Shown here in pieces: positions 24,943 through 61,958 of a stretch of 64,000 bases of DNA. Numbering within the stretch: position 1 is the first letter of the stretch; each line of letters starts with the position of its first letter. This DNA is from Chloroflexota bacterium. GTDB lineage: Bacteria; Chloroflexota; Dehalococcoidia; Tepidiformales; Tepidiformaceae. The DNA lies in assembly GCA_026710655.1 (NCBI GenBank), contig JAPOQN010000031.1, forward strand, positions 1-64,000. The letters are read 5' to 3'. The notes beneath the pieces are model-generated. The model worked only from the letters and a program-made list of their open reading frames with translations. It did not search any database and was not told where the DNA came from. Both the position numbers and the translations under genes were made by a program.

Positions 24943-25650
24943 ATGAATCGAGGCAAGCGGTTCACCACCGCCACCGACAAGATCGACAGCGCAGAGCGGT
25001 ACTCGCCCGACCAGGCCATCGCCCTGGTCAAGGAGACCGCCACCGCAAAGTTCGACGAGACGATCGAGATGCACATGCTCACCGGCCTCGATCCGCGCCA
25101 CGCCGAGCAGCAGATTCGCGGCAGCACCGTCCTCCCCCACGGCCTTGGCAAGGAGATCCGCATCGCCGTCTTCACCGAGGGTGAGCCCGCGCGTGAGGCC
25201 CAGGAGGCCGGCGCCGACATCGTTGGCGGCGACGACCTCATCCAGCAGGTCCAGGACGGCTTTACCGACTTCGACACCGCCATCGCCACCCGCGAGATGA
25301 TGGGCAAGGTGGGCCGCCTCGGCCGCATCCTCGGCCCCCGCGGCCTCATGCCCAACCCGCGCTCCGGCACCGTCGTCGCCCCCGAGGACATCGCCCGCAC
25401 CGTGGCCGAGGCCAAGAAGGGCCGCGTCGAGTTCCGCCTCGACCGTCTCGCCAACATCCACGTCGCCCTCGGCAAGGCCTCCTTCGAAGAGGAGAAGCTG
25501 CGTGACAACATGGCCACCTTCATCGAGGCCATCAACGAGGTGCGGCCCGACGTGAAGGGCGCTTTCATCCGCTCGGTCACCATCACCAGCACGATGGGCC
25601 CCGCCATCGGCATCGACGTGAACCAGGCGATGGCCCTCAAGCCCGCCTGA
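24943..25650 (+). CDS. rplA: 50S ribosomal protein L1
   Basis: The protein has 235 residues. The conserved RGSTVLPHGLGK, GRLGRILGPRGLMPNPRSGTV and C-terminal TSTMGPAIGIDV are present. It forms the L1 stalk and often represses its own operon. It lies 15 nt after rplK. In most bacteria rplJ-rplL follow at once; here they are 6.5 kb away on the other strand. Confidence 0.98.
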   Translation: MNRGKRFTTATDKIDSAERYSPDQAIALVKETATAKFDETIEMHMLTGLDPRHAEQQIRGSTVLPHGLGKEIRIAVFTEGEPAREAQEAGADIVGGDDLIQQVQDGFTDFDTAIATREMMGKVGRLGRILGPRGLMPNPRSGTVVAPEDIARTVAEAKKGRVEFRLDRLANIHVALGKASFEEEKLRDNMATFIEAINEVRPDVKGAFIRSVTITSTMGPAIGIDVNQAMALKPA

Positions 25651-25830
25651 GCCGTCCTCCTCCGCTTGGCCAGGCGGGCCCCGGGTCTCGCGGATGTTGT
25701 CCGGCCGCACGACCCCGGGGAGCCGGCCGGGGCTGTGCACCTCAAGCCGGTCGTCAAAGAGTTCGACACGCCCTCTTCCCAGCCTTCCTGCGCGTATCAT
25801 CCTTGCAGCGATACCCATGGGAGGGGCCCC

Positions 25831-26394
25831 ATGCCCAGACTCGACGACAGCGGCGCCGGTTTTGCCGGCGTCTACAGCCAGCACCGGGAGCTCTGGGAAG
25901 CGTTCCAGGTCCAGTGGGGCACCCTCTGGGAGTACGGTTCCCTTGAGCCCCGCATCCGCGACCTCGTCCGCATCAAGTCCGCCACCCTCCACGCCTGCGA
26001 CTTCTGAGCGCCTGCTCGCACTGCTGCGGCGCAGCAGGACGGCATGGACGAAGGCATGATCGCCGCCATCCACGATCCCGAGCACTCCGATCTCGAGCCC
26101 CGCGTGAAGCTCGCCATGATGTTCGTCGAACGCTGGGTGCGCGATGACGCCCGCTCCATCGACGACGCCTTCTTCTCGGAGTTGCGGGACCACTTCAGCG
26201 AGCGTGAGCTGCTGGAGCTGGCTATCACCACCGGTACCGTCGAGCTCTCGCACAAGTTCAACACCGCCTTCGGCGTCATCCCCCGCCATGAGGACGACAC
26301 CTACGAGGTGGGCACGCCCGGCGCCCCCCAGTACATGCGCGACCACCTCGCTTCCCTCGGCATCGAGTCCCCCCGGGCGAACGCGGACCGCTAG
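25831..26394 (+). CDS. predicted selenoprotein, carboxymuconolactone decarboxylase/AhpD-like, with CxxU redox motif
   Basis: The gene encodes 187 residues if the in-frame TGA at 26005-26007 is read as selenocysteine (residue 59). Before it lies RDLVRIKSATLHACDF and after it APARTAAAQQDGMDEG, then KLAMMFVERWV and HFSERELLELAITTGTVEL. Both halves belong to the same AhpD-like fold, and the TGA sits exactly at the second Cys of the family's CxxC. A 7-bp hairpin (CTGCTGC-GGC-GCAGCAG) is centred 20 nt after the TGA, within the range for bacterial SECIS elements, with G first in the loop. The start is ATG with GGGAGGGG upstream. UGA is a normal stop elsewhere in the window. A CxxU thiol/peroxide-type oxidoreductase is inferred. 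It lies 1 nt before an acyl-CoA ligase gene. Confidence 0.85.
26008..26038 (+). promoter_or_regulatory. predicted bacterial SECIS hairpin of the first selenoprotein
   Basis: The stem CTGCTGC (26021-26027) pairs with GCAGCAG (26031-26037), with loop GGC. The loop starts 20 nt after the TGA. A longer outer pairing CCTGCT/AGCAGG is also possible. Confidence 0.7.
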
Positions 26395-26395
26395 C

Positions 26396-27898
26396 GTGAC
26401 CCAGGCGGCGACGGTTCCCGAGCTGCTCGCCGCCGGCGCCCCCGACGCCGTCGCCGTGCAGGGCGCGGGCGGTCGCGACGCCACCTACGCCGGCCTCCGC
26501 GCTACCGTCGACGCGCTTGCCGGGCAGCTGCGTGGCGCCGGCATCGGCCCCGGTGACCGGGTGGCACTCGTGCTCCGCAACAGCCCCGGCATGGCCGCCG
26601 CCTTCCTCGCCGCCGCCACCGCCGGGACCGCCGCCCCCCTCAACCCCCGCTACCGCGAGGAGGAGCTGTCCCTCTCCTTCGAGGAGCTGGGCGTGAAGGT
26701 CGTCGTGGCCACCCCCGATGCGGAGGACATCCCCGCCCTCCCCGCCGTCCGCCGCCTCGACCTCCAGGGCGCCGGCCTCGACCTGACCCTGACCGAGCAC
26801 GGGACGCCCGTCCCCTCCGCCCCCGGCCCGGCCCCCTCCCCCGCGGACATCGCGATTGTCCTGCAGACCTCCGGCACAACCTCCCGCCCCAAGACCGTAC
26901 CCCTCACCCACGCCAACCTGGCCGTCTCCGCCGCCAACATCGCCGAGTCCCTCGTCCTCACCCCCGCCGATCGCTGCCTCATGGTGATGCCCCTCTTCCA
27001 CATCCACGGGCTCATCGCCGGGCTGCTGGCGCCCCTTTCGGCCGGCGGCGCCATCGCCTGCCCCGGGGACTTCAACGCCTTCCGCTTCTTCGATTGGCTC
27101 GATGCCTTCGAGCCCAACTGGTACACCGCCGTCCCCACCATGCACCAGCTCATCCTCTCCCGCGCTGGCCGCCACGCCGAGACGCTCGCGCGGACGGACC
27201 TGCGCTTCGTCCGCTCCTCCTCCGCGCCCCTCCCGCCGGTCGTACTCGAGCGCATCGAGGAGACCTTCGGCGCGCCCATGATCGAGGCCTACGGCATGAC
27301 CGAGGCCACCCACCAGATGACCGCCCAGCCCCTCCCGCCCGGCCTCCGCAAGCCGGGCGCCGTCGGACGCCCCACCGGCATCGAACTCGCCATCCTCGAC
27401 CCCGCCGGCGACCTCCTCCCGCCCCACGAGCGTGGCGAGGTCTCCATCCGTGGCGCCAGCGTCACCGCTGGCTACGAGGCCAACCCCGAGGCCAACGCCG
27501 CCGCCTTCACGGCCGCCGGCTGGTTCCGCACCGGCGACGAGGGCTACCTCGACGAGGACAGCTACCTCTTCCTTACCGGCCGCCTCAAGGAGCTCATCAA
27601 CCGGGGGGGCGAGAAGGTCGCCCCGCGCGAGGTCGAGGAGGTCATCCTCCGCCACCCCGCCGTGCGCCAGGCCGTCTGCTTCGCCCTCCCTCACGCCACC
27701 CTCGGCGAGGACGTGGCCGCTGCCGTCATCCGCAACGAGGGCGGCGCTCTCGACGAGGCCGCCGTCCGCGACCTCTGCGGCGAGCACCTCGCCCCCTTCA
27801 AGGTCCCCCGCAAGGTCGTCTTCGTCGACGAGATCCCCGTTGGCCCCACCGGCAAGCTCCAGCGCATCGGCCTCGCCGAACGCCTCGGCCTGGCGTGA
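26396..27898 (+). CDS. AMP-forming acyl-CoA synthetase (oxalate-CoA ligase-like)
   Basis: The protein has 500 residues, with a GTG start 1 nt after the selenoprotein stop. It activates a carboxylate as acyl-AMP and then acyl-CoA. Motifs are LQTSGTTSRPKTVPLTH (ATP P-loop), EAYGMTEATHQM, GWFRTGDEGYLDEDSYLFLTGR, LKELINRGGEKVAPREVEE, and the catalytic Lys in PTGKLQR. The size and several stretches recall oxalate-CoA ligases and related short-chain ligases, but substrate choice cannot be read from sequence. A ThDP enzyme resembling oxalyl-CoA decarboxylase is at 62472, which makes an oxalate role worth testing. Confidence 0.88.
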   Translation: MTQAATVPELLAAGAPDAVAVQGAGGRDATYAGLRATVDALAGQLRGAGIGPGDRVALVLRNSPGMAAAFLAAATAGTAAPLNPRYREEELSLSFEELGVKVVVATPDAEDIPALPAVRRLDLQGAGLDLTLTEHGTPVPSAPGPAPSPADIAIVLQTSGTTSRPKTVPLTHANLAVSAANIAESLVLTPADRCLMVMPLFHIHGLIAGLLAPLSAGGAIACPGDFNAFRFFDWLDAFEPNWYTAVPTMHQLILSRAGRHAETLARTDLRFVRSSSAPLPPVVLERIEETFGAPMIEAYGMTEATHQMTAQPLPPGLRKPGAVGRPTGIELAILDPAGDLLPPHERGEVSIRGASVTAGYEANPEANAAAFTAAGWFRTGDEGYLDEDSYLFLTGRLKELINRGGEKVAPREVEEVILRHPAVRQAVCFALPHATLGEDVAAAVIRNEGGALDEAAVRDLCGEHLAPFKVPRKVVFVDEIPVGPTGKLQRIGLAERLGLA

Positions 27899-28660: not shown

Positions 28661-29557
28661 ATGCCCGAGTACGAAAACCTCATCCTCGACCGCGCTGGCA
28701 CCGACGGCCGCGTCGGACGCATCACCCTCAACCGCCCCGAGAAGATGAACGCCCTCTCCCAGGAGCTGCTGTTCGAGTTCAACGAGGCCCTCCACGACTA
28801 CGAGGCCGACGACAGCATCCGCGTCATCATCATCAAGGGCGCTGGACGCTGCTTCAGCGCCGGCTACGACCTCACCCCGCCCCAGGGCCGCGGCGCCGAT
28901 GCTGTCGTCCGCCGCCACCGCGCCGTCGACGACGAGGGTCGCCGCCTCCTCTGGAACATGCGCACCGGCATGCAGCAGATCACCGACATCCAGATGTACT
29001 ACTGGAACATGGCCAAGGTCACCATCGCCCAGCTCCACGGCTACGCCCTCGCCGGCGGCTGCGAGATGGCGATGATGTCCGACATGGTCACCGCCGCCGA
29101 GGATGTCCGCATTGGCCACCCCGGCGTGCGCGGCCTCGGCGTCGCCCGCAACGGCGCCATCTTCCCGCTCGTCCTCGGCATGCGGAAGGCGAAGGAGCTC
29201 TACTACACGGGCGACAACGTCACCGGCAAGGAGGCCGAGGAGATCGGCATGGTCAACTACGCCTGGCCCGCCGACGAGCTCGAGGAGCGCACCACCGCTT
29301 TCGCCGACCGCATCGCCAACCTCAGCGCCGACCACCTCGCCATCGCCAAGACGAGCATGAACCGCTTTTACGAGAACATGGGCATCTACTCGTCCGTCCG
29401 CAGCTCCACCGACCTCGACGCCGCCGGTCAGTTCACCGCCCAGGCCTACGAGTGGCAGGACCGCACCCGGCAGGCCATGGAGAGCGGCGGCGGCCTCAAG
29501 GAAGCCCTCGACTGGCGCGACGGCCCCTACCGCGACTACCGCGCCAGCGGACGCTAG
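28661..29557 (+). CDS. enoyl-CoA hydratase/isomerase (crotonase) family protein
   Basis: The protein has 298 residues. A TATAAT box lies at 28622 and AGGAG before the ATG. The oxyanion-hole stretches are CFSAGYDL (about 66-73) and GYALAGGCEMAMMSD. Crotonases of this length include hydratases, isomerases and lyases. The typical catalytic Glu pair is not clearly kept; a stretch GVARNGAIFPL occupies that area. It therefore acts on a CoA thioester, but the reaction is not determined. The stop codon is the first base triplet of a heptamer repeat element. Confidence 0.85.
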   Translation: MPEYENLILDRAGTDGRVGRITLNRPEKMNALSQELLFEFNEALHDYEADDSIRVIIIKGAGRCFSAGYDLTPPQGRGADAVVRRHRAVDDEGRRLLWNMRTGMQQITDIQMYYWNMAKVTIAQLHGYALAGGCEMAMMSDMVTAAEDVRIGHPGVRGLGVARNGAIFPLVLGMRKAKELYYTGDNVTGKEAEEIGMVNYAWPADELEERTTAFADRIANLSADHLAIAKTSMNRFYENMGIYSSVRSSTDLDAAGQFTAQAYEWQDRTRQAMESGGGLKEALDWRDGPYRDYRASGR

Positions 29558-41445: not shown

Positions 41446-41550
41446 GGAACTATCCTGCTGGATTGCCGCCCGGATGTCCAGAGGGGTCCCAACGAACCCT
41501 GCTGCGCAACTGTCGACGGACCCGCCAGCCCCCTGCTATCCTTCCCTTGC

Positions 41551-41622
41551 TCGGGTGACTGGCGAAAACGCGGAGTACCGCGGGGGAGCCCGAGTAGTTT
41601 CACATTGGCCGCTCGCCTGGGC
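41551..41622 (+). ncRNA. ZTP (pfl) riboswitch upstream of purH
   Basis: The leader contains GGGTGACTGGCGAAAAC (41553-41569), GCGGAGTACCGCGGGGGAG, and the second conserved half GGCCGCTCGCCTGGGCC (41607-41623). These are the signature parts of the ZTP riboswitch, which senses ZTP/ZMP, the AICAR nucleotides that accumulate when folate is short. A TATCCT box lies at 41537. PurH uses AICAR and formyl-folate, so the control fits. Confidence 0.93.
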
Positions 41623-41650
41623 CGGTCCGTTCACACGGACGGGCCTTTTG
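41620..41650 (+). terminator. intrinsic terminator forming the expression platform of the ZTP riboswitch
   Basis: The stem GGCCGGTCCGT / ACGGACGGGCC, with loop TCAC and one mismatch, is followed by TTTT (41645-41648). The 5' arm begins in the last conserved bases of the aptamer (CCTGGGCC), so ligand binding can prevent its formation. Confidence 0.88.
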
Positions 41651-43506: not shown

Positions 43507-43707
43507 CTAGCGCTTCCGCTGCTCGCGGCGCCCCTTCGTCAGCTCGCGGTAACGCGCCCAGAGCTCCGCTTCCTTCTCCTGGGCGCCCTCGCGGGCGATG
43601 GTGATCGCTAGGTCGGCGGCGGCCCGGAGCTGCTCCGCCAGCTCTTCGGCGCTCATCTCCGGTGCGTCACCCTCGCCGATTACGGGGCCGTCCGATCCCG
43701 CGCTCAC
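43507..43707 (-). CDS. small charged coiled-coil protein
   Basis: The protein has 66 residues. The GTG overlaps the stop of the membrane protein upstream (GTGA). It is helical and charged (MSAEELAEQLRAAADLAITIA, EKEAELWARYRELTKGRREQRKR). It has no recognised family. The tight overlap implies it is made with, and may bind, the two-helix membrane protein. Confidence 0.6.
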   Translation of the reverse strand: MSAGSDGPVIGEGDAPEMSAEELAEQLRAAADLAITIAREGAQEKEAELWARYRELTKGRREQRKR

Positions 43708-44168
43708 GACTTGCCCCCGAAGCGGCCTCCGAGCGATGCAAGCGAATCGAGGCCGCGGCGGATGCCGCTCACGATCGAGTACACGCGGATGATGGGTGTC
43801 ACCGCGGACTCGCCCACGAACTCGGCCGTGCCCCGCACCTCGTCCACGAGGTCGCGGGTCGAATCGAGCAGTGGCACGACGTTCTTGTTTACAGCGCGCC
43901 TTACCGCCAGGGCGGTGCCGATGAGTACGGCCAGCAGGATGCAGGCGAGGACGCCCGCCAGCGCCGCGAGGATACCCAGCCCCACGACCGCGATGTCCCG
44001 CCACTCGCTCCAGCTGTCGGGGGCCGACCATGTGCTCGGCTCGGCATCGTCGGGGAAGATGTTCCCGCCGAAATAGCCGTCCACGAACCAGCTCACGACC
44101 AGGTAGACGACGATGATCAGCAGCGCCGCCAGGACGACGGTCAGGAAGAAACGCAGGGCTCCGTGCAT
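43704..44168 (-). CDS. membrane protein with two transmembrane helices
   Basis: The protein has 154 residues. Helix 1 is at about 6-26 (FFLTVVLAALLIIVVYLVVSW), followed by an exported acidic loop (GNIFPDDAEPSTWSAPDSW). Helix 2 (VGLGILAALAGVLACILLAV) is at about 62-85, then a cytoplasmic helical tail with LDSTRDLVDEVRGTAEFVGE. The tail resembles short proteins of unknown function in Chloroflexota. A -10-like TATCAT lies 6 nt before ATG. It heads a two-gene unit. Confidence 0.65.
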   Translation of the reverse strand: MHGALRFFLTVVLAALLIIVVYLVVSWFVDGYFGGNIFPDDAEPSTWSAPDSWSEWRDIAVVGLGILAALAGVLACILLAVLIGTALAVRRAVNKNVVPLLDSTRDLVDEVRGTAEFVGESAVTPIIRVYSIVSGIRRGLDSLASLGGRFGGKS

Positions 44169-56002: not shown

Positions 56003-56115
56003 CGCCCTTATCCAGACGGGTGGAGGGAACCGGCCCCGAGAAGCCCGGGCAACCTGCCTCTTCGGAGACAAGGTGCCAAAGCCGGAATCCCCTGAGGGGG
56101 AGAACGATGAGAGCG
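56003..56115 (+). ncRNA. SAM-I (S-box) riboswitch
   Basis: The core elements are all present in order: CTTATCCAGACGGGTGGAGG, GGAACCGGCCCCGAGAAGCC, CGGGCAACC, AAGGTGCCAAAGCCGG, and the closing GATGAGAGC that pairs with CTTATC. This is the standard S-box aptamer, which turns off methionine, cysteine or SAM genes when SAM is plentiful. It precedes the operon starting at 56293. A hairpin GGTCCC-gta-GGGGACC (about 56192-56207) lies downstream but lacks a T tract. Confidence 0.95.
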
Positions 56116-61448: not shown

Positions 61449-61958
61449 TCAGGAAGGCTTCAGGCCGAACGAATGGATCAGCCGCCCGTAACCCAGGTAG
61501 CTCACGACCGCCCAGCCGATCTCGAGGATCTGCTCCTCGGTGAAGTGCTGCCCGAGCTCATCGAACAGCTCGCCGTCGATGTTGGCGTGGTCGACGAACA
61601 GCCGCTCCGCATAGTGGAACGCCGCCTTCTCCGCCTCGCTGAAGTCCTGGTCGCCCCACGTCGAAATCTTGCCGACGGTGGTCTCCTCGAGGGTGTCACC
61701 TTCCCCTGACAGGGGAATTCGAGCGGCCTGTCAGAAGTCGCAGGCGTTCAGTTGCGCGACCCGCAGCCGCACCATCTCCTTCAGCCGCGCGGAAACGGCC
61801 CCGTCCCGGATCAGCGGGCGGTACCACTCGTTCCATCGCCCGAACAGCTCGGCGTTGTGCCCGAACACGCGCGTGAAGTCGTCGCCGCGGCCACGCAGCC
61901 CTTCGGGCAGTTCATCGTCGCGGGCAAGGCGGATGTGGGGGGCAGGTGTGTCACTCAT
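61449..61958 (-). CDS. predicted selenoprotein, carboxymuconolactone decarboxylase/AhpD-like, with CxxU redox motif (second copy)
   Basis: The gene encodes 169 residues if the in-frame TGA at 61733-61731 is selenocysteine (residue 76). The preceding MVRLRVAQLNACDF and following QAARIPLSGEG form the family's CxFCQxxR region with U at the second Cys. The second half (DFSEAEKAAFHYAERLFVDH, HFTEEQILEIGWAVVSYLGY) is the normal continuation of the fold and runs in frame to a TGA at 61451-61449. A 6-bp hairpin TTCCCC-TGTCA-GGGGAA starts 13 nt after the TGA, with its loop at 19 nt and G second in the loop. A -10-like TAGAAT lies 7 nt before ATG. It heads an operon with an esterase. Confidence 0.88.
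61701..61717 (-). promoter_or_regulatory. predicted bacterial SECIS hairpin of the second selenoprotein
   Basis: On the minus strand TTCCCC and GGGGAA pair around TGTCA. The loop begins 19 nt after the TGA, the same distance as in the first selenoprotein although the sequences differ. Confidence 0.7.

What the first reader, a model, noticed from the sequence alone, without database searches (positions are those of the whole stretch)
25831..26394. Predicted selenoprotein 1: AhpD-like gene with in-frame TGA at CxxU
The frame from ATG 25831 meets TGA at 26005 exactly where the second Cys of a CxxC is expected (HACDF-TGA-APAR). It continues in the same frame for 128 more codons of the same fold. 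A 7-bp hairpin with a GGC loop is centred 20 nt downstream, in the accepted range for bacterial SECIS elements. TGA is the ordinary stop in many other genes here, so a changed code is unlikely. AhpD-like selenoproteins are known as a class; this subfamily in this lineage may not be described.
Basis: partly seen in the sequence, partly recalled or inferred. Interest (0 to 1): 0.88.

Follow-up and report, generated by a model that had tools for sequence, protein, structure and literature searches.

The report
AhpD-fold selenoprotein, one of five
A gene that looks cut short by a stop codon almost certainly reads that codon as the selenium amino acid selenocysteine in its active site; this kind of protein is known, but this bacterium makes a whole set of them and carries an unusual change beside the active site.

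Summary
The frame 25831-26394 is open except for TGA at 26005-26007, which sits at the second Cys of an AhpD-type CxxC (C56-D-F-U59). The genome holds selA, selB, selC and a selD that itself has an in-frame TGA. TGA is kept at this codon in 37 of the 38 named loci that span it, from Chloroflexota to marine Gammaproteobacteria; the 38th has TGC. A 7-bp hairpin starts its loop 20 nt after the TGA. It is reached by 5 of 40,000 synonymous recodings, pairs in all 196 cells of 28 distinct sequences with compensatory changes, and is missing in the Cys homologue. The predicted fold is AhpD/PA0269-like (Z 17). The gene is one of five CMD/AhpD paralogues in this genome with CxxU; the other three CMD genes found have no CxxC. 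AhpD-like selenoproteins are known since 2005. What differs: Arg replaces the AhpD relay His, curated full-length models do not cover it, and a sister genus that lost the Sec machinery carries Cys. Substrate unknown; a peroxidase or thiol adaptor is most likely.

The parts
25831..26394 (+). AhpD/CMD-fold selenoprotein gene, 187 residues with Sec at 59 (C56-D-F-U59-A-P-A-R63), stop TAG
26005..26007 (+). in-frame TGA read as selenocysteine
   Evidence: TGA in 37 of 38 named loci that span this codon, TGC in one; selA/B/C/D present
26021..26037 (+). bacterial SECIS hairpin, 7 bp, GGC loop, loop 20 nt after the TGA
25819..25826 (+). GGGAGGGG, likely ribosome-binding site before ATG 25831
   Evidence: sequence read; inference
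26396..27898 (+). FadD7-like acyl-CoA ligase (AMP-binding), starts 1 nt after the selenoprotein's stop; likely co-transcribed
   Evidence: follows the selenoprotein in 6 of 7 named genus loci
28664..29557 (+). enoyl-CoA hydratase-like gene (name by eye), next conserved neighbour
   Evidence: present in 6 of 7 named genus loci; L095 ends before it
24943..25650 (+). ribosomal protein L1, upstream neighbour, ends in TGA as an ordinary stop

Best explanation
The gene encodes a selenoprotein. SelB-bound Sec-tRNA(Sec) reads UGA 26005 as selenocysteine with the help of the hairpin 26021-26037. The product has the AhpD/PA0269 fold, with C56 and Sec59 at the start of the active-site helix. Sec59 takes the place of the second catalytic Cys of AhpD-like proteins. 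Most likely Sec59 is the attacking nucleophile on a peroxide or disulfide and C56 resolves it, giving a Se-S bond that a cellular thiol donor then reduces. The gene is one of five CxxU paralogues in this genome. Supported by computation: machinery, conserved reading-through, SECIS, fold. Inferred: expression, chemistry and substrate. The confidence below is for the selenoprotein claim; I give the peroxidase or thiol-adaptor role about 0.5.
For: selC 71 bits over its cut-off and called tRNA-SeC(tca); selA 428 bits; selB 300 bits; selD 345 bits with its own in-frame TGA at CGGUASK. Of 71 matches in 60 related genomes, 62 carry a TGA; I translated 59 of the 71, and 50 have C-x-x-U, 6 C-x-x-C, 3 neither. 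37 of 38 spanning named loci have TGA. All 18 genomes behind the 18 named loci that I tested have SelA over the cut-off. SECIS: all 196 cells paired, 14 cells changed on both sides against 3.4 in shuffles, 0 of 500 as high. Codons at identical residues: 92 of 96 identical in the stem, 401 of 900 elsewhere. Substitutions fall on third codon positions on both sides of the TGA: 82/23/336 before, 229/145/1019 after. AlphaFold pLDDT 86.9, pTM 0.84; Z 17.2 and 17.1 to 2gmy and PA0269. Pfam CMD in 37 of 37 aligned members.
Against: No protein-level evidence. Two of the five own-genome paralogues have 7-bp hairpins that codon choice alone often gives (p 0.17 for C33:61509, 0.52 for C5:69400), and a third (C1:42945) has only a 5-bp continuous stem, p 0.90. 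Free energy alone separates few members from recodings. 3 of 22 CxxU genomes show no SelA hit, but these are 81, 72 and 54% complete and hold tRNA-Sec. G010 has SelA but only a 42-bit tRNA-Sec match. The substrate is unknown, and the relay His of AhpD is Arg here.
Confidence: 0.95

Rival explanations
1. TGA is a real stop. The gene is a pseudogene, or two separate ORFs with a restart at ATG 26044.
For: Table 11 gives two ORFs, 25666-26007 and 26044-26394; the Met at the restart is nearly invariant.
Against: TGA and frame kept in 8 genus genomes and in Gammaproteobacteria; third-position bias on both sides of the TGA; the break would cut the active-site helix 59-69 from C56; the Cys homologue is continuous; the hairpin is conserved and covaries.
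Confidence: 0.02
2. TGA is read as another residue (a changed code or a suppressor tRNA).
For: The frame is open when TGA is read.
Against: TGA ends 6 of 18 window genes checked; the tRNA with anticodon tca found is tRNA-SeC; the site matches Cys in homologues, not Trp or Gly.
Confidence: 0.01
3. It is a selenoprotein, but not a peroxidase: for example a reductive dehalogenase like Bmp8 (same fold), or a redox sensor like the fold's Sestrin relatives.
For: Bmp8 (6ohi/6ohj) is among the sequence and fold matches (E 1.8e-11; Z 14.7); Sestrin2 also matches (Z 13.2). Sec serves dehalogenation in thyroid deiodinases (recalled). The His of AhpD is lost.
Against: PA0269-type peroxidase-related proteins match better (Z 17). 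Bmp8 has C-M-Y-C-K-S-H where this family has C-x-x-U-x-P-x-R. The conserved neighbours are acyl-CoA genes by name.
Confidence: 0.15

Closest known systems
AhpD-like selenoproteins of the Sargasso Sea and Global Ocean Sampling surveys (PMC1088965, PMC2398784; passages read)
   Same: CxxU in AhpD/CMD-fold proteins; 27 AhpD-like and 4 CMD sequences in 2005, 299 'AhpD-like 1' (COG2128) and 70 'AhpD-like 2' (pfam02627) in 2008.
   Different: Those passages name families, not this subfamily or lineage; their sequences were not held, so overlap cannot be excluded.
P. aeruginosa PA0269 (2ijc, 2o4d, 7xw1) and A. tumefaciens Atu0492 (2gmy)
   Same: Closest solved relatives by sequence profile (E 1e-14 to 1e-15) and fold (Z about 17); same active-site helix pair; PA0269 is a weak H2O2 peroxidase (PMC3141380).
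   Different: They have CxxC and His four residues on; here CxxU and Arg; about 20% identity.
NF053654, YciW-related (seleno)protein (NCBIfam)
   Same: Best E-value among NCBIfam models for all five paralogues; by its name a family with Sec and Cys forms.
   Different: 36 to 61 bits against a cut-off of 310: not members.
Debrominase Bmp8 (6ohi, 6ohj)
   Same: AhpD fold and CxxC position; marine source (recalled).
   Different: Different motif after the second Cys; 14 to 16% identity.

Membership tests
Bacterial selenoproteins | in-frame UGA where homologues have Cys | tested here: met
Bacterial selenoproteins | selA, selB, selC, selD in the genome | tested here: met
Bacterial selenoproteins | SECIS within the published limits (loop 3-9, stem 4-16 bp, G in first two loop bases, spacing 16-37 nt, energy <= -7.5; PMC13188914 Fig. 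2 legend) | tested here: met
   loop 3, stem 7, G first, 20 nt, -9.8; covariation
Bacterial selenoproteins | selenium in the protein | not testable with these tools
   needs 75Se labelling or mass spectrometry
CMD (PF02627) | Pfam gathering score | tested here: met
   31 bits against 23; 37 of 37 members matched at E 0.001
AhpD-like peroxidase-related family (as in PMC3141380) | AhpD/PA0269 fold | tested here: met
   (predicted model)
AhpD-like peroxidase-related family (as in PMC3141380) | Cys-x-x-Cys | tested here: met
   met with Sec in the second place, C56/U59
AhpD-like peroxidase-related family (as in PMC3141380) | His four residues after the second Cys (His55 of PA0269), called invariant in that paper | tested here: not met
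   R63, invariant in 37 aligned rows; Arg in 45 of 50 U forms and 6 of 6 C forms
AhpD-like peroxidase-related family (as in PMC3141380) | acidic residue 12 before the first Cys (Glu36) | tested here: met
   D44; E or D in 46 of 50 U forms
NF053654 / TIGR01926 / NF041047 / NF041238 (NCBIfam AhpD-type models) | curated cut-off | tested here: not met
   below cut-off, or not listed, for all five paralogues
Bmp8 debrominases | C-x-x-C-x-x-H as in 6ohi | tested here: not met
   motif differs
Bmp8 debrominases | bromopyrrole turnover | not testable with these tools
   needs an enzyme assay

The most novel reading that the evidence does not exclude
C-x2-U-x3-R proteins are a catalytic class of the AhpD fold of their own. 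Sec, already deprotonated at neutral pH (recalled chemistry), has made the His-based proton relay unnecessary, and Arg holds the selenolate instead. An oxidase-bearing Chloroflexota lineage has built its whole redox CMD set (five paralogues) on this class and shares one branch with marine Gammaproteobacteria by gene transfer, SECIS included. Lineages that lose the selenium machinery fall back to Cys but keep the Arg.
Probability: 0.3. Interest if true: 0.6.

Novelty: new member of a known kind. Interest (0 to 1): 0.45.

Why it matters
Table 11 annotation cuts this gene in two, and the same holds for all five paralogues. The set makes a clean natural experiment: Sec and Cys forms of one enzyme in sister genera with and without the selenium machinery. 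It also bears on the review statement that aerobic bacteria rarely keep selenoproteins (PMC13188914), since this genome carries a COX1-type oxidase.

Tried and rejected
Free-energy z-scores of 45 nt after the TGA: informative for this gene (z -5.1, none of 500 recodings as low) but not for most relatives, because GC-rich recodings fold well anyway; replaced by a stem-length test.

Operon linkage as a clue to function: the ligase is missing in L099, and none of the window's neighbour proteins was found beside the loci outside the orthologous genus group; ORF listings of seven of those loci showed no shared neighbour by eye.

The first genome search used PF01268 by mistake (FTHFS: no match); it has no bearing.

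A 49-bit tRNA-Sec match in each of four Cys-only genomes was rejected: ARAGORN calls tRNA-Ser(gct) there.

Literature: 'AhpD-like' + selenoprotein (7 papers), selenoprotein + carboxymuconolactone decarboxylase (5), selenoprotein + Chloroflexi (32, 25 listed), selenocysteine + sponge + symbiont (15), Tepidiforma + selen (2): by titles and abstract starts, none describes this subfamily in this lineage; the library lacks most subscription papers. Bmp8 + debrominase gave none. The deep-Sep paper has no AhpD or Chloroflexota text.

Full report
WHAT IS THERE. The coordinates are right. ATG 25831 opens a frame that meets TGA at 26005-26007 and goes on for 128 codons to TAG 26392. The TGA falls at C56-D-F-U59. 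Pfam CMD matches across the TGA at 31 bits, cut-off 23. TGA ends 6 of 18 other window genes checked.

MACHINERY. The window lies in a 3.14 Mb genome of 71 contigs, 93% complete. It holds selC (71 bits, tRNA-SeC tca), selA (428 bits), selB (300 bits, over the cut-off) and selD (345 bits). selD itself has an in-frame TGA at CGGUASK. Named relatives with matching contig lengths are Dehalococcoidia, Chloroflexi and, for G005, a Tepidiformaceae chromosome. The organism of the window is therefore a Chloroflexota relative of these; its own name is not told. It has a COX1 oxidase.

RELATIVES. P0001 finds 71 matches in 28 of 60 related genomes; 62 of the 71 carry TGA. I translated 59: 50 have C-x-x-U, 6 C-x-x-C, and 3 have no such motif. 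22 of the 28 genomes hold a U form and 6 only a C form. SelA is found in 19 of the 22 and in 2 of the 6. The 3 U genomes without a SelA hit are 81, 72 and 54% complete and hold tRNA-Sec(tca). The 4 C-only genomes without SelA are one genus (g13), 92 to 98% complete, and their best tRNA-Sec matches are tRNA-Ser. In the tree the four g13 Cys rows sit in a set of otherwise U rows, and G012 (Cys) pairs with G010 (U); at least 3 changes between U and C are needed over 68 rows (quick search, some open forks; the tree does not tell gain from loss). With the loss of the machinery in g13, Sec to Cys is the likely direction there (inference). In 294 genomes of the class, 17 have a match at 1e-20 or better; 49 of the 51 matches carry a TGA, the others being G012 and one G037 gene without CxxC.

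A scan of named genomes gave 40 loci. 38 span the site: 37 have TGA, one TGC (L106). One (L132) is cut before the site and one (L133) is a chance match. Besides Chloroflexota, many are marine Gammaproteobacteria by their record titles, about 40% identical. All 18 genomes of the 18 loci that I tested, mostly these, have SelA. Gammaproteobacterial rows group with one paralogue branch of Chloroflexota (support 99 for the joint set), which suggests gene transfer between phyla (inference).

SECIS. Loop 3 nt (GGC), stem 7 bp, spacing 20 nt, -9.8 kcal/mol, within the published bacterial limits read in PMC13188914. Recoding the same peptide gives a 7-bp stem in 5 of 40,000 draws. Over 38 sequences, 28 distinct, all 196 cells pair and 3 of 7 pairs change on both sides; sliding the partner by 1 to 3 columns gives at most 70% paired. 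Codons at identical residues are identical in 92 of 96 cases in the stem but 401 of 900 elsewhere, window against 24 relatives. All six Cys homologues tested have stems of only 3 to 4 bp there. Against: for three of the five paralogues of this genome the hairpin is not better than codon choice would give (p 0.17, 0.52, 0.90; stems 7, 7 and 5 bp).

FOLD AND SITE. AlphaFold gives pLDDT 86.9 and pTM 0.84 with the Sec position at the start of helix 59-69 (Cys was modelled). Best fold matches are 2gmy (Z 17.2, rmsd 2.2, 146 aligned) and PA0269 2ijc (Z 17.1, 2.0, 141). PMC3141380 (passages) lists the relay of PA0269 as Glu36, Cys48, Tyr50, Cys51 and His55. By position these are D44, C56, F58, U59 and R63 here. 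Arg in place of His is invariant in the 37-row alignment and found in 45 of 50 U forms and 6 of 6 C forms. That paper calls Cys48, Cys51 and His55 invariant in the structures it compared, so this family departs from the AhpD site in one defining residue.

PARALOGUES AND CONTEXT. Five CMD genes of this genome have CxxU (C33:25831, C33:61509, C37:77754, C1:42945, C5:69400). The other three CMD genes found by Pfam (C8:90334, C7:147170, C1:43688) have no CxxC. So in what the search saw, every CMD gene with a redox motif uses Sec. In the genus the order L11, L1, selenoprotein, FadD7-like ligase, enoyl-CoA hydratase-like gene is kept; the ligase follows in 6 of 7 named loci and is missing in L099. 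This may point to acyl-CoA metabolism, weakly.

HOW IT WORKS. Reading UGA as Sec at 59 is as well supported as sequence can make it. By analogy with PA0269 and M. tuberculosis AhpD, the pair C56/Sec59 should cycle between selenol-thiol and Se-S, reducing a peroxide or passing electrons to a partner. That step is inferred.

NOVELTY. AhpD-like selenoproteins are known (PMC1088965, PMC2398784, PMC13188914; passages read). The full-length NCBIfam AhpD-type models are all below cut-off, or not listed, for the five paralogues; only the 51-residue ahpD_dom core model passes, for one of them, C37:77754. I file it as a new member of a known kind, with the Arg, the five-fold set and the oxidase-bearing host as the points of interest.

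Noticed in passing
window 61452-61958 (-), TGA at 61731-61733: Second CxxU CMD/AhpD paralogue in the same window (LNACDFUQAARIPL), with a TTCCCCT-GTC-AGGGGAA hairpin 20 nt after the TGA; orthologues in other genera also have TGA.
   Followed up: partly
L054 (G000:C1:42945-43391 and 43688-43927, both -): A CxxU CMD gene lies next to a CMD gene that keeps the first Cys but has lost the second (HDCEAELAVRH). G037 shows a like pair (CAYD beside CHNU). Perhaps an active and an inactive partner that work together.
   Followed up: no
L072 (G000:C8:56278-57213, -): selD with in-frame TGA (CGGUASK): the selenophosphate synthetase is probably itself a selenoprotein.
   Followed up: partly
G020, G028, G032, G034 (genus g13 of the same family): SelA absent, and the best tRNA-Sec match is tRNA-Ser by ARAGORN, while the homologous CMD gene has CGFC: apparent loss of the Sec trait with Sec-to-Cys change.
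   Followed up: partly
window 41545-41629 (+) and 56005-56113 (+): ZMP/ZTP riboswitch (64 bits) and SAM riboswitch (73.7 bits).
   Followed up: no
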